This document shows positions 1-40,162 of a stretch of 40,162 bases of DNA, in pieces; the first letter of the stretch is position 1, and every line of letters starts with the position of its first letter. Location: positions 1 through 40,162 of the IMG/VR virus record IMGVR_UViG_3300042923_001169, one strand, 5' to 3'. Source of the stretch: a virus. A program made the position numbers and the translations under genes. The notes beneath the pieces are model-generated. The model did no database searches, was not told where the DNA came from, and was given only the letters and a program-made list of their open reading frames with translations.

Positions 1-8
1 TTGTCCAC
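1..8. repeat. Left copy of terminal 8-bp direct repeat
   Basis: The window starts with TTGTCCAC and the same 8 bases end it (40155-40162). Together with the gene layout this suggests a circular or circularly permuted molecule cut at an arbitrary point. The repeat is not next to the integrase or the terminase, so neither an att core nor a cos end fits well. Confidence 0.5.
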
Positions 9-52
9 CTATCCTTTATATGGTAGAATCTCCATGGAAGGAGTTGTTATAT

Positions 53-832
53 TTGGATACAACAGATTTATTAAAGACAAAAGCCTTTGAGAAAGCTCTT
101 GAAAAACCAGCTATAACTTTTGGAACTGCTATTAACGGCTTATTACTTACTGTTTTTGCTCCACTTATTAAATACAACATTAAAAAGGAAACTGAGATTG
201 AAGCATATAAAGAATCAATTTTAAGCCAAGTCTCAAAAATACCAAAAGAAAAATTTATCGAACCTCCACTAAATATAATTGGTCCCGCAATTGAAGCATC
301 TAAGTTTTATATTGATTGTGCTAATTTAAAATCAATGTTTTCTAAACTTATAGCATCCTCAATGAACATAGATACAGTTGAACTTACGCATCCATCTTTT
401 ATCGATGTTATTAAGCAGCTATCACCCTTTGATGCAATTGTTTTAAATGAATTATCTAATTCTTTAACTCATCCAATAATTTCTTATAGACTGGATGAAA
501 CTGTTTCTACATCATTTGGTATTATTGGATTCACTATAATTAAAAACTTGGTAAAAATTGATTGCATAAATTCTACAAACTTTAGTTCTTTGCCTAAGAG
601 CATCGATAATTTAATACGATTAGGCTTAATTGATGTTAGTTATGATTCTGAACTTTCACCTTTTGCTTTATATAAAAGTGTTACGGAACACTTTTATAAT
701 CTTGTAAATCCAATTGTTGAAAAAGACTTTTTAACAAAAGATGAATTTAAGGATCGAACTCTAAAAGTTATCCATGGCGCCTTAGATTTTACAAATTATG
801 GTCAAGACTTTATAAATACATGTATTAGTTAA
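53..832 (+). CDS. DUF4393 / Abi-alpha-like abortive infection protein
   Basis: Resembles the Abi_alpha (DUF4393) family, which is linked to phage-exclusion functions; the molecular activity is not known to me. The N-terminal part carries the family-like pattern of a Lys-Pro-Ala stretch followed by a Gly/Ala-rich hydrophobic helix and a basic segment, and the rest is mostly helical. I chose the TTG at 53 because AAGGAG lies 9 bases upstream (38-43). An ATG at 20 is in frame but has no ribosome binding site, and the frame stays open to the window edge, so a longer N-terminus cannot be excluded. It is the only + strand gene in an otherwise leftward early region and overlaps the end of the next gene by 4 bases, which suggests an inserted accessory gene. 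Family assignment is moderately sure; the role in superinfection exclusion is inferred. Confidence 0.65.
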   Translation: MDTTDLLKTKAFEKALEKPAITFGTAINGLLLTVFAPLIKYNIKKETEIEAYKESILSQVSKIPKEKFIEPPLNIIGPAIEASKFYIDCANLKSMFSKLIASSMNIDTVELTHPSFIDVIKQLSPFDAIVLNELSNSLTHPIISYRLDETVSTSFGIIGFTIIKNLVKIDCINSTNFSSLPKSIDNLIRLGLIDVSYDSELSPFALYKSVTEHFYNLVNPIVEKDFLTKDEFKDRTLKVIHGALDFTNYGQDFINTCIS

Positions 833-3268: not shown

Positions 3269-4507
3269 ATGATTGGAATCGATTTTGTACACCGGAAAGA
3301 AAATAAAAATCTAATTATTTTCGTCCATGGTTTTACAGGGAGTAAAGAAACATGGAAGAACTCTAAAGATGAATACTTTTCGGAAATGCTTCTAAAAAAT
3401 ACTGAAATAGAAAAAAACTATGATATTGCATATTTTAACTATTATACTAGGTTTATTGAAATGTTTAATAATAAATTTGGTAATTTAGTTTTTAAAGCGT
3501 TGTTTAAAAGAGGAGCTAAAAAGCCCAGAAAAAACTTAGATATAAATGAATTGGCAGAGTTTATGGGTTCCATCATAAGATATAACTGTTCCAACTATGA
3601 TAATATTATTATCATAGCCCACAGCATGGGTGGCTTAATATCAAAGTCCTATATACTAAATGAAATTAAAGAAAATGGTAATACGCAAGTTAAGCTTTTC
3701 CTTTCTCTTGCTGTGCCGCACTCAGGCACGAACCTTGCTACTCTGGCACAACTTATAAATATTAAAAATATTCAAGTATCAGATTTAGCTCCATTGACTG
3801 ATACTACATCGAAGCTCACAAGAGATTGGATAAATTCAGAACATCCTAAAACTATATACTTTATAGGTCAGTATGATGAAGTTGTAGAAAAAGTTAGTGC
3901 CATCGCCTTTGATGCAAACAAGCCTGACATTGTAAACTGCGATGAAAGCCATACATCTATCTCTAAGCCTGAATCGACAACTGACTTAGTTTATGTTTCT
4001 ACACAAAAGATTCTGCTAGAATTTCTTGAACAGCAGAACTTATTTAAAAATATGACAGTAAAAAAGTACAATGACGATGGCAGGTATAATGAAGAACTTT
4101 TTGTTGTAAAGCTTATAGTAGCCGACATAGATAAAACTTTAATAAATGGTGCTAAACAGCAGTTTTTTAATGCAGAATACGTTACCAAGATATTAAACAA
4201 GAAACAGGCTGACTGCTTAGAAGAGCTCTATGCTAAGATTAAGGACTTGTATTTCCTTTATTACGGAAAGTATATAAGTAATAAAATAGAAGGCAGTAAT
4301 GCACTTATTACAAGTATCCACGAAAAAATTCGTGAAGATACTCAGCTCAATATTAGCAGCGAAGAATATAAGAAGCTTTTTTCTAAACTTGATTATATGC
4401 ATAAGACTGGTATGCTGCACCAATTAGCTAATCAAGAGAAGGAAGAAATTTTCTGGAAGAAGGACTGTTCTGATGATATTAAAAAATATGTTACGGAGAG
4501 AGAGTAA
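3269..4507 (+). CDS. Alpha/beta hydrolase fused to an ABC-3C-type C-terminal domain (predicted effector)
   Basis: The first about 245 residues are an alpha/beta hydrolase of the lipase/DUF676 type. The oxyanion loop is FVHGFTGS (about 18-25), the nucleophile elbow AHSMGG has Ser119, and Asp203 (GQYDEVV) and His228 (ESHTSISKP) have the right spacing for the rest of the triad. The last about 160 residues are charged and helical with no hydrolase features and match the idea of the shared C-terminal module of ABC-three-component effectors. The stop overlaps the next ATG (TAATG), so the three genes are translationally coupled. The substrate, perhaps a lipid ester or acylated protein, is not shown. 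The start at ATG 3269 is the only good one; AGGGGG lies 12-13 bases upstream. Hydrolase fold is sure, the effector role is inferred from context. Confidence 0.8.
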   Translation: MIGIDFVHRKENKNLIIFVHGFTGSKETWKNSKDEYFSEMLLKNTEIEKNYDIAYFNYYTRFIEMFNNKFGNLVFKALFKRGAKKPRKNLDINELAEFMGSIIRYNCSNYDNIIIIAHSMGGLISKSYILNEIKENGNTQVKLFLSLAVPHSGTNLATLAQLINIKNIQVSDLAPLTDTTSKLTRDWINSEHPKTIYFIGQYDEVVEKVSAIAFDANKPDIVNCDESHTSISKPESTTDLVYVSTQKILLEFLEQQNLFKNMTVKKYNDDGRYNEELFVVKLIVADIDKTLINGAKQQFFNAEYVTKILNKKQADCLEELYAKIKDLYFLYYGKYISNKIEGSNALITSIHEKIREDTQLNISSEEYKKLFSKLDYMHKTGMLHQLANQEKEEIFWKKDCSDDIKKYVTERE

Positions 4508-5022
4508 TGAGTAAGCTGCCTTTTATTATTGTTGAAAATGACATTGATATTCGACTTACTAGGTTGTTAATTTTAATTAGTGAATTATCATACTCTTCTA
4601 AAAAGAACCCTATATTAACTATTGATAAAATTGCAGTCTATGACTTTCTATTAAGATATCCTACTATTTTATATAGAATTACTAAAATAGAAAATTTTAA
4701 AAAAAGTTTTGATCTTGAGGACTATGAATTTAATAATATAGAATCAAATTATCCAGATTTAAGTATTCTCTATGATTACACAGTTCTCACTAAGCTACTG
4801 CAGATTCTTATATGTTATGGATATGTTTCAACAACCGTTAGTAAAGAAGCCTTTTATATAATCACGGATGCTGGCAATGAATTTTTAAGTTCTTTAACTT
4901 CCGAATATATAAAAAGACTTAAAGAGCTTGTAGTTATACTTCTACAAATGAGAACTTTAAATTTTCAAAAATTAAATAAATCTATTAATCTTGCTATAGA
5001 TGGAGGAAATATTTATGAGTAA
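4507..5022 (+). CDS. ABC-3C middle component (predicted)
   Basis: A 171-residue helical protein between an effector-like gene and a zinc-hook ATPase, with one base of overlap on its left and 8 on its right. This is the size and place of the middle component of ABC-three-component systems. The centre (about residues 85-135) has a likely winged-helix pattern, with a helix LTKLLQILICYGYVSTT followed by a beta wing and an ITDAG turn. In this class the middle component is thought to bridge ATPase and effector. Identification rests mainly on context. Confidence 0.65.
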   Translation: MSKLPFIIVENDIDIRLTRLLILISELSYSSKKNPILTIDKIAVYDFLLRYPTILYRITKIENFKKSFDLEDYEFNNIESNYPDLSILYDYTVLTKLLQILICYGYVSTTVSKEAFYIITDAGNEFLSSLTSEYIKRLKELVVILLQMRTLNFQKLNKSINLAIDGGNIYE

Positions 5023-7009
5023 TTCTCCTAGTTTAATAATAAATAAATTAGTACTTGTAGGCCGCAGAAAAAATTATACTATCCCTTTTCACAAAGGCCT
5101 TAATGTTATATACGGTGACTCAGACACCGGTAAGTCCAGTATACTAAACTTAGTAGACTATAGCCTTGGCAGCGCCAAAGTTGATATGTATGATGAAATC
5201 GAATATAGTGGGAAATACTGTTTAATGGAAGTTCAACTTAACGGTAAGACCTATACTATAAAAAGGGATATATTTGATAGTGAAGATTTTATTCAAGTAT
5301 ATCCCAGCAGCATTGAAGAGATGGATTCCATATTTCCCTATGAATATGGACCTCATTATAATAAAGAAGGTGCTGCAGGTTTTTTCTCTGATTTTTTACT
5401 TCAATCATTAAATATCCCATTGGTTAAAGTAAAGAGAGCGCCAACTCAGGCCGTCTCTGAACCAGTACGAGTTGGCTTTCGAGATATATTTAAATTCTGC
5501 AACATGAATCAAGATGAAGTAGGGAGTAAATTTATATTAGATGCTAAAAATGGTCCCGTATTTACCAAAAACAAGGAGACATTTAAGTTTATTCATAATG
5601 TTTTAGATAGCCAAATAACTGAACTTCAAAACGATCAGTCCGCTAAAGTGAAAGAGAAAAATAAATTAGAAAATAAATTAGATATAATATCAAGCTTTCT
5701 TAGAGAAACTCAACTAAAGCCAATTGATATATTAGCAAATGAATTAAATATTCTAGATGAACAATATAATTCTATTGAACTAGAAATTAAAGAATTAAAT
5801 ACTAATATGTCCTCAAATACAAAATACAATAATGAACTAAGAGAAATTATTCAAAATAAGAAACTCCAATTAAATGAAATAGATACTAACAAAGAAGCAT
5901 TAGAAGCCAATTTAGAGCAAAATATAAGATTAAAAAAAGAATATGATAAGGATATAACAAAACTTCAATCTGTTATTGAAGTTAAAACCAAAATGCCAAT
6001 TTCTGTCTCCAAAGAAGCTGATTGTCCTGTATGCCATAGGCAAATGAAAATTGAAGACTTAAAGCAATGTCTAGGTCAAAATAATGCTGTATTTCTTAAA
6101 GAAGAAATACAGGCCCTTAAGCGCCGTAAGCAAAATTTAATTAGCTTAATTGATAAACAGTTTGATGATCTTAGTAAGTTAGATAGACAGCGTGAAATTC
6201 TTATTGAGGAGTTAAACAAAGCTGAAATACTTTTAGACTCTAATACTAAAACTTTTATTTCACCATATATTTCTCAAAGAGATGGATTAATAGCTCAAAG
6301 AGCTGCTACCAATGAACAAAAAAGCAAAATATCATATTTGTTGAAATTAAGAAAGCAACTTGGTCTTATCAGTAAAGATATTGAAACTACTCAAAAACAA
6401 ATAGATGATCTTATTATAAAAATTGATGAACTCAAAAAGAATGCACCTTCCACCGAAACTATAGTTTCTGATTTAGGTGATTACTTAAAGAATTTCTTGG
6501 ATTATGTAAGAATCAAAAATCCAATTAATATAGGTATAAATGATAAATCATTTTTACCTATAGTTAGAGGTAAAAACTATTTAGATCTTACTTCTGGAGG
6601 ACTTAGGACAATAACTTCGGTTGGATACTTTGTGAGTTTATTAAGAAATAGCTTAGCTAATAACACAAATCTTCCAAAGTTCTTAATGATTGATACTATT
6701 GGTAAATATCTAGGTAAAACAGATGAAAAATCTAAAGCTGACACTAACCCTAAGGAAGATGCATTAGAGGGTATTAGCGATCCTCATAAGTATTTAAATA
6801 TGTATAAATATTTAATTAACCTATGTGAAACTAAGGATAAAACTGAGGAAGGCATCGACTTCCAAATATTAATTGTAGATAATGAAATTCCTGTTGAGAT
6901 TGAAAAGATAGTTGCTCAATATGTTATAAAACGCTTTAGTACTGAGCATCGTGAAGGATTTGATATAGGATTTATTGATGATGCAGACAGTAATAGTAGT
7001 ATTCTATAA
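5015..7009 (+). CDS. ABC-3C ATPase, DUF3732-like, Rad50/SMC-type with zinc hook
   Basis: A 664-residue SMC/RecN-like ATPase and probable sensor or regulator of the system. Walker A is GDSDTGKSS (about residues 34-42). Long coiled coils (about 200-330 and 355-460) flank a CPVC zinc-hook motif (Cys337, Cys340). The signature is LTSGG (about 525-529), and the Walker B strand is FLMIDTIG with Asp560. The usual catalytic Glu after the Asp is a Thr, as is common in DUF3732-like ATPases (they read DS or DT), so hydrolysis may be slow. ATG at 5015 follows GGAGG by 8 bases and is preferred to the ATG at 5000. A hairpin at 7037-7070 follows. Fold is sure, subfamily fairly sure. Confidence 0.8.
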   Translation: MSNSPSLIINKLVLVGRRKNYTIPFHKGLNVIYGDSDTGKSSILNLVDYSLGSAKVDMYDEIEYSGKYCLMEVQLNGKTYTIKRDIFDSEDFIQVYPSSIEEMDSIFPYEYGPHYNKEGAAGFFSDFLLQSLNIPLVKVKRAPTQAVSEPVRVGFRDIFKFCNMNQDEVGSKFILDAKNGPVFTKNKETFKFIHNVLDSQITELQNDQSAKVKEKNKLENKLDIISSFLRETQLKPIDILANELNILDEQYNSIELEIKELNTNMSSNTKYNNELREIIQNKKLQLNEIDTNKEALEANLEQNIRLKKEYDKDITKLQSVIEVKTKMPISVSKEADCPVCHRQMKIEDLKQCLGQNNAVFLKEEIQALKRRKQNLISLIDKQFDDLSKLDRQREILIEELNKAEILLDSNTKTFISPYISQRDGLIAQRAATNEQKSKISYLLKLRKQLGLISKDIETTQKQIDDLIIKIDELKKNAPSTETIVSDLGDYLKNFLDYVRIKNPINIGINDKSFLPIVRGKNYLDLTSGGLRTITSVGYFVSLLRNSLANNTNLPKFLMIDTIGKYLGKTDEKSKADTNPKEDALEGISDPHKYLNMYKYLINLCETKDKTEEGIDFQILIVDNEIPVEIEKIVAQYVIKRFSTEHREGFDIGFIDDADSNSSIL

Positions 7010-22717: not shown

Positions 22718-22734
22718 TGGTATCCTCCTAAAAT

Positions 22735-22767
22735 AAAAAGCACCCTTTCGGTTAAAGAGTGCTTTTT
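22735..22767 (-). terminator. Internal terminator between tail tube and chaperone genes
   Basis: Stem AAAAAGCACCCTTT with AAAGAGTGCTTTTT (one mismatch), T-rich on both strands. It should lower transcription after the abundant sheath and tube proteins. Confidence 0.75.
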
Positions 22768-22771
22768 TATA

Positions 22772-23194
22772 TTATGCTATTTTTTCTAATACATCATAGT
22801 TTGAGAACTTAAGTGGCAATTCTTCATCTATTGGAGCTTTAGCTTCAAACTTAGCTAAAATAAATTCAGTAAATACAATATCACTTACTGCTGCTCTTTC
22901 AGATTGTCCTGTAGCTTTATCAGTAAGTTTAGTTATTATTTTTACATCTGGCATAACTCCTGTTTTATATGCATCTGCTAAGAGATTTACTGCAGTACTA
23001 TCACATTTTGCCCAGGTCATAGTACCCTCGCCAGTCCATCCAGTGTATCTGTTATATGTTGCAAAATCGCCACAGAAGTTTACTTCTTCAAAGTTGCCTG
23101 TAACTTTAAGCTCTATAGATTTAATTGTTGCTACCAGCTTTCCATTCATCCATACATTGCCTGTAGAACCGGTTAAAATTCTATTTTTTTGCAT
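22772..23194 (-). CDS. xkdM: Tail tube protein (XkdM-like)
   Basis: A 140-residue core tail tube protein. The pattern NRILTGSTGNVWMNGKLVAT, IELKVTGNFEEVNFCGDFAT, and RYTGWTGEGTMTW is typical of XkdM. The gene directly follows the sheath gene. AGGAGGTGAGAGC precedes the ATG. Confidence 0.9.
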   Translation of the reverse strand: MQKNRILTGSTGNVWMNGKLVATIKSIELKVTGNFEEVNFCGDFATYNRYTGWTGEGTMTWAKCDSTAVNLLADAYKTGVMPDVKIITKLTDKATGQSERAAVSDIVFTEFILAKFEAKAPIDEELPLKFSNYDVLEKIA

Positions 23195-32134: not shown

Positions 32135-32680
32135 CTACAGAAAACTTAATTCTTTAACTGATTTATCTAGTTCATCTTGAATAACACCTATGTATCTTAA
32201 GGTTACTCTTTGGTCGCTATGATTGAATATTTCCATAAGCTGCACTACATCGTGGTTCTCAGTGTAATGCCAATATCCAAAGGTTTTTCTTAACACATGA
32301 CAGGATATATGAATATCAAATAAGTTTCCTATTTCTATAAGGACTTGATAAGCTCTATTCCTTGTTACAGCCTCATTTTCTCCTTCTCTACTGCTTATCA
32401 AAAATTCATAGTGCTCCTTATCTTTGCAGTATTGTCTTAGTTCTAGCTGTAGTTCCTTATTAATTAAAAACTTCTTAGGCTTTTTTGTCTTTTGTTCAAT
32501 AATGTTAATGTGTGTCCTATTTTTAACATCCCTTACTCTAAGCCTTAGAATATCTGATATCCTTAGCCCTGTATGTATACCTAGAAGAAAAAGAATATAA
32601 TTTCTTTCATTATCTCTTTTTAAGTAAAGTAAAATATCTCTTAACTTTTTCTTTGTTCTTATGGGTTCAACGTAGTTCAC
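32135..32680 (-). CDS. Short tyrosine recombinase (XerD-like catalytic domain only)
   Basis: A 181-residue integrase-family protein with the full active site: Arg40 (TGLRISD), a basic Lys66-Lys70 strand, His128 and Arg131 (CHVLRKTFGYW), His154 (NHSDQRVT) and Tyr163 (LRYIGV). The usual N-terminal SAM-like DNA-binding domain is missing. GTG start, overlapping the gene before it by 4 bases (GTGA). As the phage already has a serine integrase, this one more likely acts on phage DNA, such as dimer resolution, or in regulation. Confidence 0.85.
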   Translation of the reverse strand: MNYVEPIRTKKKLRDILLYLKRDNERNYILFLLGIHTGLRISDILRLRVRDVKNRTHINIIEQKTKKPKKFLINKELQLELRQYCKDKEHYEFLISSREGENEAVTRNRAYQVLIEIGNLFDIHISCHVLRKTFGYWHYTENHDVVQLMEIFNHSDQRVTLRYIGVIQDELDKSVKELSFL

Positions 32681-32874
32681 ACACGCCTCACCTGCCTTAT
32701 TGCACCCTTTTCTCTCCTATAAAACCGCTGTTTCATACATTCAGGTAATCCATCGTATTTATCAAATTTAAAATCTAGCTCTTCACAAGTTTTAGCATGG
32801 ATGCACTTATGATTTAAAGCACAAACACACGCTACTTCTCCATTTTCCCATTTTGTTCTAAAAGTACACCTCAT
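32677..32874 (-). CDS. Cys-rich small protein
   Basis: A 65-residue protein. MRCTFRTKWENGEVACVCAL with more Cys residues (HKCIHAKTC, PECMKQ) suggests a zinc-binding fold. I chose ATG 32874 with AAAGGTGATAGC upstream; the longer frame runs into the dam terminator. Translationally coupled to the tyrosine recombinase, so it may assist it, but no family is recognised. Confidence 0.6.
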   Translation of the reverse strand: MRCTFRTKWENGEVACVCALNHKCIHAKTCEELDFKFDKYDGLPECMKQRFYRREKGAIRQVRRV

Positions 32875-36484: not shown

Positions 36485-37489
36485 TTATTGATTATCCCAT
36501 CCAAGAAGCTTTCTCTCTAACTCGTCAAAGTTATATTCTCTCTGCTCATAGTTATTAAAAGTGCTTATGGTTCCATTGCTGTTGCGGGTTATATGACTAG
36601 TTTTATTATCATAATTACCCTCTAGGATTTTGATTGAATTACTCTCCTTGATAATCCAATCAAAGTTGCAGTTTTGCCATATTCCATTGCGTCCAGTAAG
36701 AAAATCACTTTTTTGAACCCTTGTAAAGAGAGCTTGTATATCTTTTATGGACTGTAGCCTTCTCCAAAGGTGTTTAATCATTTTGTCTCTCTGCTTGCTC
36801 CTGGCTTTAACCTGAGGTAAAGACTTACAAAAATTATTATAGAGCTCAATGATTTCACTATATGGAGTCTTATCAGTTGACACAATATCAGATGAGACTT
36901 CATCTGATGAAACAGATTCAGTGATGTTCATGGAGTCGCTTTGCTTTATATATATAATATTATTATTTTCTTTTTTGTTTTCTTTTTCTTTTTTGTTTTC
37001 TTTTTGCCCACGATACGCTAACGAATCGTCTGACGTATCGCCAGAAGGACTTTCATCTTTCTGTGTTCCTCCTATAACACTATCAAAAATTATTTTAAGC
37101 TTATCATTGATTATATTCTCTGAAACATAGTGGATTAAAGATTTATCTTCTACCATGTTAAGTTCTTTAGTAATGCAGTCTTCAATAGGCTTACCGCCTT
37201 TATTTAAGTTGTACTTACCCCAATTCTTAATAGCGAGCTCTCTAGTTTCTGCATTATATTTAATAAGCTTATGATGGCTTAAAAATCTATCCATAAGACT
37301 ATTTACCGATTCTATAGAATAACCTAATTCAAAAGCTATAGCTTTCTTTGTAATCTTATATATACCTATTTGTGTGGTATGGCTGTTTGTAAGTAAGTAT
37401 AGATAAAACAACTTATCTTCAGGTGTATAATTTTCTTGCACTTTTGGATCTTCCCAAAAGCTTGTATAAACATATCTATATTGAGCCAT
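36485..37489 (-). CDS. DnaD-like phage replication initiation protein
   Basis: A 334-residue replisome organiser. The N-terminal winged helix (residues 1-100: MAQYRYVYTSFWEDPKVQEN, then KLFYLYLLTNSHTTQIG) recruits replication proteins. A Ser/Asp/Lys-rich linker (about 140-205) holds a KENKKEKENKKE run. The C-terminal part (LTGRNGIWQNCNFDWIIKES) is the DnaD/phage O-type DnaB-binding end. No separate helicase loader is seen, so the host DnaC/DnaI would be used. AACAGGAGGTAGAA precedes the ATG. Confidence 0.85.
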   Translation of the reverse strand: MAQYRYVYTSFWEDPKVQENYTPEDKLFYLYLLTNSHTTQIGIYKITKKAIAFELGYSIESVNSLMDRFLSHHKLIKYNAETRELAIKNWGKYNLNKGGKPIEDCITKELNMVEDKSLIHYVSENIINDKLKIIFDSVIGGTQKDESPSGDTSDDSLAYRGQKENKKEKENKKENNNIIYIKQSDSMNITESVSSDEVSSDIVSTDKTPYSEIIELYNNFCKSLPQVKARSKQRDKMIKHLWRRLQSIKDIQALFTRVQKSDFLTGRNGIWQNCNFDWIIKESNSIKILEGNYDNKTSHITRNSNGTISTFNNYEQREYNFDELERKLLGWDNQ

Positions 37490-38165: not shown

Positions 38166-38447
38166 TTAATACTTATAATCAGGAACATATAAAACTTGTC
38201 CTGGGTAAATCACTTCATTTACATTGTTTCTGAACTTAATTTCTGCAACCACATTTTCAATTTTTTCAAATCTTTGCACATATTTCTCAGCTATAATGGA
38301 AAGGCAGTCTCCCTCTTTAACAACATATACCCATTCCTTATTTTCATTAGGTTGTACACACTTTACATATGTCCTGCTTATAATAAAAGTAGACAGTGCC
38401 AAGGCTAATGCTCCATAAGTAAAGAAACGTTTATATTTTCTAAGCAT
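38166..38447 (-). CDS. Membrane-anchored LysM protein, YneA-like
   Basis: A 93-residue protein with a basic start (MLRKYKRF), one membrane span (TYGALALALSTFIISRTY) and a C-terminal LysM domain (YVVKEGDCLSIIAEKYVQRF to NVNEVIYPGQVLYVPDY). This is the layout of the SOS division inhibitor YneA of Bacillus. It may stop host division during infection. A start at ATG 38468 would add 7 residues but lacks a ribosome binding site; ATG 38447 has GGGAG 11 bases upstream. A divergent small-RNA promoter overlaps its 5' end. Confidence 0.65.
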   Translation of the reverse strand: MLRKYKRFFTYGALALALSTFIISRTYVKCVQPNENKEWVYVVKEGDCLSIIAEKYVQRFEKIENVVAEIKFRNNVNEVIYPGQVLYVPDYKY

Positions 38448-38476
38448 TGATTCCAAAGCTCCCTTCATGCTATAAT
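38447..38476 (+). promoter_or_regulatory. Promoter of a predicted small RNA
   Basis: TTGATT (38447-38452), 18 bases, then TGC-TATAAT (extended -10, 38471-38476). A strong + strand promoter in a region where all genes are on the - strand. Confidence 0.6.
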
Positions 38477-38482
38477 GGAGCT

Positions 38483-38557
38483 AGAGTATTTCCGACAATA
38501 CTCTAGCAAAAGAATTTTATTCTTCAGATAGACCCTCACTAAAGGGTTTATTTTTTT
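38483..38557 (+). ncRNA. Predicted structured small RNA, antisense to the early operon
   Basis: About 75 nt from the expected start near 38483 to a T-run. It folds into three stems. The first is CTAGAGTATT / AATACTCTAG (38481-38490 with 38497-38506, a perfect 26-bp palindrome counting the loop). The second is AAGAAT / ATTCTT (38510-38515 with 38519-38524). The third is a terminator stem ACCCT / AGGGT (38532-38536 with 38543-38547) followed by TTATTTTTTT. It lies in the gap between two - strand genes and could pair with the leader of the LysM mRNA or act in trans. Read-only evidence. Confidence 0.5.
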
Positions 38558-38984
38558 ACTCAATTTCTATCTCAGTCAGGAATTCGTTTAATGAGATTTT
38601 TGACTCGTCTCCATGAATCCTATAGGTTTCCTGTATCATAGTAAGCACAAAATCATATTTATTCTTAGTTTCTTTATAAAGCTTATTAGCCTGTGGTAGA
38701 GTTACATATTCTATCTTCTGATTACTAAATGTAGGCCACCAAACCTTATTTGAAGTTTTATTAAGCTTAAACCACTCTTCTTTCTTCCACTCAGTTAAAG
38801 TTCTAATTACATCCTTTATTGACTTTAGTTCATTAGCAAGTAATACTAATTCACCTGAAACCTGCAGCATAAATCCATATCCTAACTCATTATTAAATTT
38901 AGCTACTTTTTCAAAATCATCTTCTACTGAATAACCACAATAATCATCGCGAATAGCAAAAATCATTAATTTTTCCTTTTCCAT
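38556..38984 (-). CDS. Hypothetical early protein, 142 aa
   Basis: A 142-residue soluble protein with MIFAIRDDYCGYSVEDDFEK at the start, a GYGFMLQVSGELVLLANEL strand-helix and ETYRIHGDESKISLNEFLTE at the end. GGAAGGGTGATTAC precedes the ATG. It belongs to the early operon behind the XRE regulator. No family is recognised. Confidence 0.6.
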   Translation of the reverse strand: MEKEKLMIFAIRDDYCGYSVEDDFEKVAKFNNELGYGFMLQVSGELVLLANELKSIKDVIRTLTEWKKEEWFKLNKTSNKVWWPTFSNQKIEYVTLPQANKLYKETKNKYDFVLTMIQETYRIHGDESKISLNEFLTEIEIE

Positions 38985-38998
38985 GTAATCACCCTTCC

Positions 38999-39523
38999 TT
39001 ATCTTCTTAAATATCCACGATCTATAAGCTTCTCTCTGTGCTCTGAAAACAGTTCTTTAATACTAAACCCATATTCGTTACACATAACCGCTATATAATG
39101 AGCTATGGCATTATATACGTCTATAGATTCCATAATACTTTTCCTTGCCAAATCCTTTTGTTCTTGTTTGCTAGCCTTTGGATTATCATAAACTCTCACT
39201 TGATTTATAGCTCTCATTGCTTCACTGAGTTCCTCTATAACCTTTTCTTTTACTGAAGCTCTATGTAAATCTGCACATTCACCATCTAGCCAGGATACCC
39301 CAAAAACTCCTCCAGTAACTTCATTTGCTGCTTCCATATAAAGCCTAGGATCATCAAGCTCTTTTGTTATATTGCCAAGAATATCAAAGCTTGCTTGCCT
39401 TTTTCCTCTCTCTATGGCTGAGACTAGTTTCCCAGAGCAAAATCCCATTGAGCCAACGGCTTCCTGTGTAAAGTTCCTATTTAGCCTTGCTCCTTTAATG
39501 GCTAAACCTAAATCAGACATCAT
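38999..39523 (-). CDS. XRE-family transcriptional regulator
   Basis: A 174-residue protein. Residues about 2-60 form an XRE helix-turn-helix (IKGARLNRNFTQEAVGSMGF, then GKLVSAIERGKR). The remainder is a helical domain of about 110 residues (SVKEKVIEELSEAMRAINQV; SIDVYNAIAHYIAVMCNEYG). AAAGGGGGAACAA precedes ATG 39523; the longer frame to 39559 has no ribosome binding site. It may control the early operon from the inverted repeats at 39567-39596 upstream. Confidence 0.8.
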   Translation of the reverse strand: MMSDLGLAIKGARLNRNFTQEAVGSMGFCSGKLVSAIERGKRQASFDILGNITKELDDPRLYMEAANEVTGGVFGVSWLDGECADLHRASVKEKVIEELSEAMRAINQVRVYDNPKASKQEQKDLARKSIMESIDVYNAIAHYIAVMCNEYGFSIKELFSEHREKLIDRGYLRR

Positions 39524-39566
39524 TTGTTCCCCCTTTTGTAGAATATATGTATATTTCAATGTTCAT

Positions 39567-40154: not shown

Positions 40155-40162
40155 TTGTCCAC
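40155..40162. repeat. Right copy of terminal 8-bp direct repeat
   Basis: TTGTCCAC, identical to positions 1-8. If the ends are joined on this overlap, the early leftward operon continues from 829 into 40128, with the opposed DUF4393 gene between. Confidence 0.5.

What the first reader, a model, noticed from the sequence alone, without database searches (positions are those of the whole stretch)
38447..38557. Predicted about 75-nt small RNA with extended -10 promoter, three stems and a terminator
A + strand promoter (TTGATT, 18 bases, TGC-TATAAT) leads straight into a perfect 10-bp hairpin, a second 6-bp hairpin and a terminator with T-run. All of this fits in the gap between two leftward genes. 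Nothing else is encoded on this strand here, so the arrangement is hard to explain by chance. It could be an antisense regulator of the LysM/early transcript.
Basis: partly seen in the sequence, partly recalled or inferred. Interest (0 to 1): 0.68.

Follow-up and report, generated by a model that had tools for sequence, protein, structure and literature searches.

The report
Conserved antisense RNA in Firmicutes-type phages
This phage carries a roughly 75-letter RNA gene on the strand opposite to its early genes, and related RNAs with a compensating hairpin sit at the same spot in other phages, which points to a new antisense switch comparable in position to the classic OOP RNA of phage lambda.

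Summary
The predicted small RNA is in the sequence and is supported by comparison; no transcript has been seen. The window is a whole 40-kb temperate phage record from a low-GC, apparently Firmicutes host. At 38447-38557 (+) an extended -10 promoter, a 5'-terminal hairpin and a T-run terminator lie in an intergenic gap. None of 60 simulated windows gave such a unit. The block is 77% conserved in phage L009, although both flanking genes differ there. A gapped DNA pattern found two further families (L022; L023/L024), and a covariance model found a fifth member (G002) in a phage chosen only for its terminase. The 5' hairpin shows changes on both sides at 6 of 10 pairs across five sequences, with 96% of cells paired. 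The middle hairpin is not conserved. In all five phages the RNA lies opposite the early operon, after the early regulator genes and before the replisome organiser, while genes in between change. Best reading: a cis-antisense RNA that limits the early/replication transcript, probably by duplex cleavage. It matches lambda OOP in position and architecture but shows no detectable homology. It is not in Rfam. LysM as the dedicated target is not supported. Mechanism and expression are inferred.

The parts
38447..38452 (+). -35 box TTGATT of the small-RNA promoter
   Evidence: 18-base spacer; L009 has TTGTAC at 17 bases
38468..38476 (+). extended -10 TGC-TATAAT
   Evidence: kept as TGCTATTAT in L009, TGCTATAAT in L022, AGCTATAAT in L023, TATACT in G002
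38483..38557 (+). predicted antisense small RNA, about 75 nt, start predicted at A38483
   Evidence: fold z = -4.8; R2/R3 family models; covariation. Transcript not observed
38481..38506 (+). stem 1: 5'-terminal hairpin, 10 bp in DNA (8 inside the predicted RNA), conserved with compensatory changes
   Evidence: 6 of 10 pairs changed on both sides, 96% of cells paired
38510..38524 (+). middle 6-bp hairpin; not conserved in relatives
38526..38557 (+). intrinsic terminator hairpin with T-run
   Evidence: terminator G-U changes fit only the + strand, 7 cells to 0
38457..38482 (-). mRNA-strand segments AGCTCC (38477-38482) and GGGAGCT (38457-38463, holds the LysM ribosome-binding site) that can pair; similar pairing possible in all five phages
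   Evidence: read from sequence; inference, not in the minimum-energy fold of the window leader
38166..38447 (-). LysM membrane protein gene downstream of the junction, start taken as 38447
   Evidence: PF01476
38556..38984 (-). 142-aa gene upstream of the junction, no known family; its stop codon touches the RNA's 3' end
38999..39559 (-). early helix-turn-helix regulator (PHROG 1124)
   Evidence: 80% identical in L009
36485..37489 (-). DnaD-like replisome organiser
   Evidence: phrog_6251, phrog_1701

Best explanation
A phage-encoded cis-antisense RNA of about 75 nt. Host RNA polymerase starts it at an extended -10 promoter placed just ahead of the next early gene. It folds into a 5'-terminal hairpin, a linker and a terminator hairpin, and stops at the end of the preceding early gene. 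It is fully complementary to the junction in the early (leftward) transcript between the regulator genes and the replication genes. Most likely it pairs with that transcript and causes cleavage or arrest there, so that early/replication expression is limited, either in the lysogen (silencing leaky early mRNA) or once copy number rises. Shown: the promoter, hairpin and terminator; their conservation; covariation of the hairpin; the conserved strand and place. Inferred: that it is transcribed, that it pairs in cis, that RNase III cuts the duplex, and the direction of the effect.
For: Promoter-hairpin-terminator unit unique in the window and absent from 60 simulations. Block kept at 77% in L009 although both neighbouring genes differ. 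Two more families from a pattern that did not specify the hairpin, and an independent fifth member in G002. Covariation: 7 pairs and 13 cells changed on both sides, against at most 4 when slid. Terminator G-U changes fit the + strand only, 7 to 0. Same strand and same slot (early regulators - RNA - replisome organiser) in all five phages. OOP and SR6, antisense RNAs in comparable junctions, act through RNase III.
Against: No expression data. The pairing and cleavage steps are by analogy only. The upstream gene is overlapped only slightly in the window. Several related phages and all named Firmicutes phages scanned lack a credible copy. Only five distinct sequences; three were found with a pattern that fixed the -10 and the terminator end, and the alignment is fitted to the model.
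Confidence: 0.55

Rival explanations
1. The promoter, more than the RNA, is what matters: transcription against the early operon next to the replication genes interferes with early transcription or helps to activate the phage origin, as reported for lambda pO. The RNA is a by-product.
For: Position before the replication genes in all five phages; pO of lambda has such a role while oop RNA itself seems to matter little for replication (PMC3985674).
Against: Compensatory changes in stem 1 are not expected if only the promoter matters. No iterons were evident near the element; the window shows only an 18-nt direct repeat inside the replisome gene.
Confidence: 0.17
2. The conserved structure acts in the early mRNA (minus strand): hairpins in the leader of the next gene control its translation or mark a processing site. 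The + strand promoter and terminator are secondary.
For: Stem 1 is almost strand-neutral (4 to 2 cells). The mRNA segment next to it can pair with the next gene's ribosome-binding site in all five phages, and does so in the predicted fold of L009 and L023.
Against: The terminator stem and T-run make sense only on the + strand (7 to 0), and a -10 box is kept at the same distance from the hairpin. The ribosome-binding-site pairing is not in the predicted fold of the window leader, and any CUCC can pair with such a site.
Confidence: 0.13
3. A type I antitoxin: the RNA neutralises a toxic small protein encoded by the gene before or after it, as SR6 does for yonT and yoyJ in prophage SPbeta.
For: Layout resembles SR6, a 100-nt antisense RNA between two genes of a prophage operon (PMC5848175). 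In G002 the next gene encodes a 31-aa hydrophobic peptide and in the window LysM has a membrane-spanning start.
Against: The neighbours are not homologous between phages, and in L009, L022 and L023 they are not small hydrophobic peptides.
Confidence: 0.08
4. A trans-acting phage RNA against host or other phage mRNAs; its place in the early region is only where it is kept.
For: The block survives exchange of both neighbours.
Against: Loops and linker differ between families, so no common seed is visible; cis complementarity is perfect by construction. Trans targets were not searched.
Confidence: 0.04
5. Chance: a promoter-like and a terminator-like sequence in an AT-rich gap, without a function.
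For: No expression data; many related phages lack it.
Against: Conservation, independent members and covariation.
Confidence: 0.03

Closest known systems
OOP RNA of phage lambda (pO-oop-tO)
   Same: 77 nt from the 5' end at 38675; encoded opposite to the early operon between the regulator cII and the replication gene O; folds into a 5' hairpin and a terminator hairpin; its promoter lies at the start of the next gene.
   Different: No match of the family model in the lambda region. OOP overlaps the end of cII by 52 bases, here the overlap is 2 bases in the window and about 35 in L022. No CII relative was recognised upstream. LexA control was not found.
SR6, antitoxin RNA of yonT/yoyJ in Bacillus prophage SPbeta
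   Same: About 100-nt antisense RNA at the junction of two genes in a prophage operon, acting through RNase III.
   Different: SR6 belongs to small toxin genes; here the neighbours are unrelated genes that change between phages.
Plasmid copy-control antisense RNAs (CopA type, ctRNA type; from general knowledge)
   Same: Short stem-loop antisense RNA encoded opposite the leader of a replication transcript; L023, L009 and G002 have a 26-31-aa ORF at the head of that leader.
   Different: No attenuator with a U-run in the mRNA strand was seen, and the replisome organiser is usually not the first gene after the RNA.

Membership tests
lambda OOP RNA | Short RNA opposite to the early operon, between early regulator and replication genes | tested here: met
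   all five phages; lambda layout
lambda OOP RNA | Two hairpins, the second an intrinsic terminator | tested here: met
   OOP folded the same way
lambda OOP RNA | Extensive overlap with the 3' end of the upstream regulator gene (cII) | tested here: not met
   2 bases in the window; upstream gene has no PHROG or Pfam match
lambda OOP RNA | Sequence/structure homology to OOP | tested here: not met
   R3 gives no hit in the lambda region at E up to 10
lambda OOP RNA | RNase III-dependent decay of the complementary mRNA | not testable with these tools
   needs an experiment
Type I toxin-antitoxin (SR6 type) | Partner gene encodes a small hydrophobic toxin, conserved with the RNA | tested here: not met
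   neighbours differ in every family and are mostly not small hydrophobic peptides
Plasmid-type attenuator antisense RNA | Intrinsic terminator in the mRNA leader | tested here: not met
   no minus-strand terminator at this junction; no U-run in the leaders as read
Any Rfam 15 family | Match at or above the gathering score | tested here: not met

The most novel reading that the evidence does not exclude
A new family of phage antisense RNAs in low-GC (apparently Firmicutes) temperate phages, a likely independent counterpart of lambda OOP, that keeps its place between the regulator and replication modules while the genes around it are exchanged, and that controls entry into replication or the lysis-lysogeny choice, possibly together with a leader hairpin that hides the next gene's ribosome-binding site.
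Probability: 0.4. Interest if true: 0.72.

Novelty: new variant of a known kind. Interest (0 to 1): 0.6.

Why it matters
OOP has been treated as a lambdoid feature. An RNA of the same layout at the same functional junction in unrelated phages of another bacterial phylum would suggest that an antisense RNA at the switch between regulation and replication is a recurrent solution, and it gives a searchable covariance model and a simple genetic test. Such RNAs are missed by protein-based phage annotation.

Tried and rejected
Exact-repeat and exact-core searches in viral contigs found nothing or only L009. Blastn of the element and its relatives against named phages and plasmids found nothing. Protein searches of genome contigs (regulator alignment, terminase) gave no confirmed locus, so hosts are not named and host genomes were not surveyed. 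My last viral scan had a mistyped terminator (GGGTTNTTTT instead of GGGTTNNTTTT); its three hits (L025-L027) are chance matches without the architecture and serve only as a negative contrast. L003, fetched through LysM, is a tail protein, not a syntenic relative. Window 22726-22821 (-) and phiC2 32629-32728 score weakly with R3 but show a terminator without the 5' hairpin; rejected. Thirteen accessions of Clostridium phages were tried from memory; only phiC2 was held. An operator reading of the CTCC...GGAG symmetry over the -10 was dropped: it occurs once in the window, and chance gives about 0.9. Model R1 (sequence only) was not used. Trans targets were not searched.

Full report
The window is a complete 40,162-base virus record. 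It is a temperate phage with tail sheath, tape measure, terminase, serine integrase and S24 repressor genes. Its terminase is 67% identical to that of Terrisporobacter phage TPELB_ph1, and the next matches are Geobacillus, Paenibacillus and Bacillus phages, so the host is probably a Firmicute, perhaps a Clostridium relative. The early genes run leftward from about 39.9 kb: a 66-aa gene, a helix-turn-helix regulator (PHROG 1124), a 142-aa gene of no known family, a small LysM protein, further small genes, and a DnaD-like replisome organiser.

TTGATT, 18 bases, TGC-TATAAT, a perfect 10-bp inverted repeat, a 6-bp hairpin and a T-run terminator lie at 38447-38557 on the + strand. The 75-nt RNA folds with z = -4.8. 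In a simulation of 60 windows of the same dinucleotide make-up none had an extended -10 promoter scoring 10/12 followed by a terminator within 30-130 bases, while the window has exactly one, this one. The LysM start is better placed at 38447, behind GGGAG, than at 38468. Transcription is predicted to start at A38483, and the T-run reaches the stop codon of the upstream gene.

Comparison decides the question of reality. Contig L009 was fetched through the regulator protein (80% identical), not through the element. Blastn aligns the regulator gene and then only 38459-38573, at 77%. In L009 the 142-aa gene is mostly missing and LysM is replaced by other genes, yet the -10, stem 1, terminator and T-run remain. 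All variable pairs but one keep pairing on the + strand.

A gapped pattern (GCTATNATGG, 52-82 bases, AGGGTTTATTTT) in 2.9 million viral contigs returned L009's contig plus three others, L022, L023 and L024, the last two carrying the same element. The pattern did not specify the space between, yet each has a hairpin of different sequence starting a few bases after the -10. Model R2, built from window and L009 only, scores them at 35-39 bits (E 1e-6 to 1e-5). For scale, only 4% of TATNAT-like sites in this material are followed at that distance by a hairpin of at least 7 uninterrupted pairs (L022's stem has one bulge, so this is only a rough yardstick).

Model R3, from these sequences, was run over whole records. 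It found one new member at E 6.5e-5, in G002, the record behind L004, which had been fetched because its terminase is 80% identical to the window's. The element there (L039 1501-1611) has a TATACT -10, a hairpin of new sequence and a terminator, and lies on the strand opposite to the early genes, directly ahead of a 31-aa ORF and the replisome organiser. Its -35 box is weak. The other related phages and named Firmicutes phages that were scanned gave no credible member.

Across five distinct sequences, stem 1 has changes on both sides at 6 of 10 pairs with 96% of cells paired; the whole structure has 7 such pairs and 13 such cells, against at most 4 of each when partners are slid. That alignment was fitted to the model's structure, which favours it somewhat. 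The terminator stem has 7 cells that pair as G-U only on the + strand and none the other way; stem 1 is nearly neutral at 4 against 2 (sign test over both, p 0.02). The middle hairpin is not shared.

Place and strand are constant. In all five phages the element is opposite to the early operon, downstream of the early regulators and upstream of a replisome organiser; in G002 the organiser belongs to different PHROGs. The genes immediately on either side differ in each family. That argues against LysM as the dedicated target and for control of the operon as a whole.

Mechanism. The RNA is by construction complementary to the early transcript over its whole length, at the junction before the replication genes. 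In L022 (about 35 nt) and in L009 it also overlaps the end of the preceding reading frame. The simplest reading is duplex formation followed by cleavage, as described for OOP on cII mRNA (PMC5869508; PMC12197685) and SR6 on yonT mRNA (PMC5848175). This would limit early and replication gene expression in the lysogen or as copies accumulate. None of this is shown here. A promoter-only role, as argued for pO in lambda replication (PMC3985674), and a leader-RNA role (the mRNA segment opposite the -10/start region can pair with the next gene's ribosome-binding site in all five phages, read) remain open.

Relation to the known. Lambda OOP is the closest in place and shape; it was folded here and also gives a 5' hairpin plus terminator. 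It is not matched by R3 and its long overlap with cII is not reproduced, so it is an analogue, not a shown homologue. Nothing in Rfam 15 matches. Literature searches in the open-access library found no description of such an RNA in this position in Clostridium or other Firmicutes phages, though only titles and abstracts of most hits were seen and subscription papers are mostly not held.

Noticed in passing
window 3269-7009 (+): Lamassu-type (ABC-3C) defence cassette carried by the phage: LmuA 3269-4507, LmuC 4507-5022, LmuB 5000-7009, near the serine integrase.
   Followed up: partly
window 20-832 (+): Abi_alpha abortive-infection protein (PF14337, E 3e-44; PADLOC PDC-S47).
   Followed up: partly
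window 38531-38546: The terminator hairpin contains ACCCTCACTAAAGGG, which from memory is the core of the T3 RNA polymerase promoter; L009 has CCCTCTGCAAAGGG there, so it looks like coincidence.
   Followed up: partly
L009 about 5735-5830, L023 about 3410-3490, L039 1382-1480: Tiny ORFs of 26-31 aa beginning MKK directly downstream of the RNA in three phages; not obviously homologous, possible leader peptides.
   Followed up: no
L023 3511-5239: ParA and ParB genes follow the RNA in L023, which suggests that this phage may persist as a plasmid.
   Followed up: no
window 36966-37001: Perfect 18-nt tandem repeat TTTTCTTTTTTGTTTTCT inside the replisome organiser gene; possible origin element or low-complexity linker.
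   Followed up: no
window 1-8 and 40155-40162: The 8-base string TTGTCCAC stands at both ends of the record; possibly an attachment-site core or assembly overlap.
   Followed up: no
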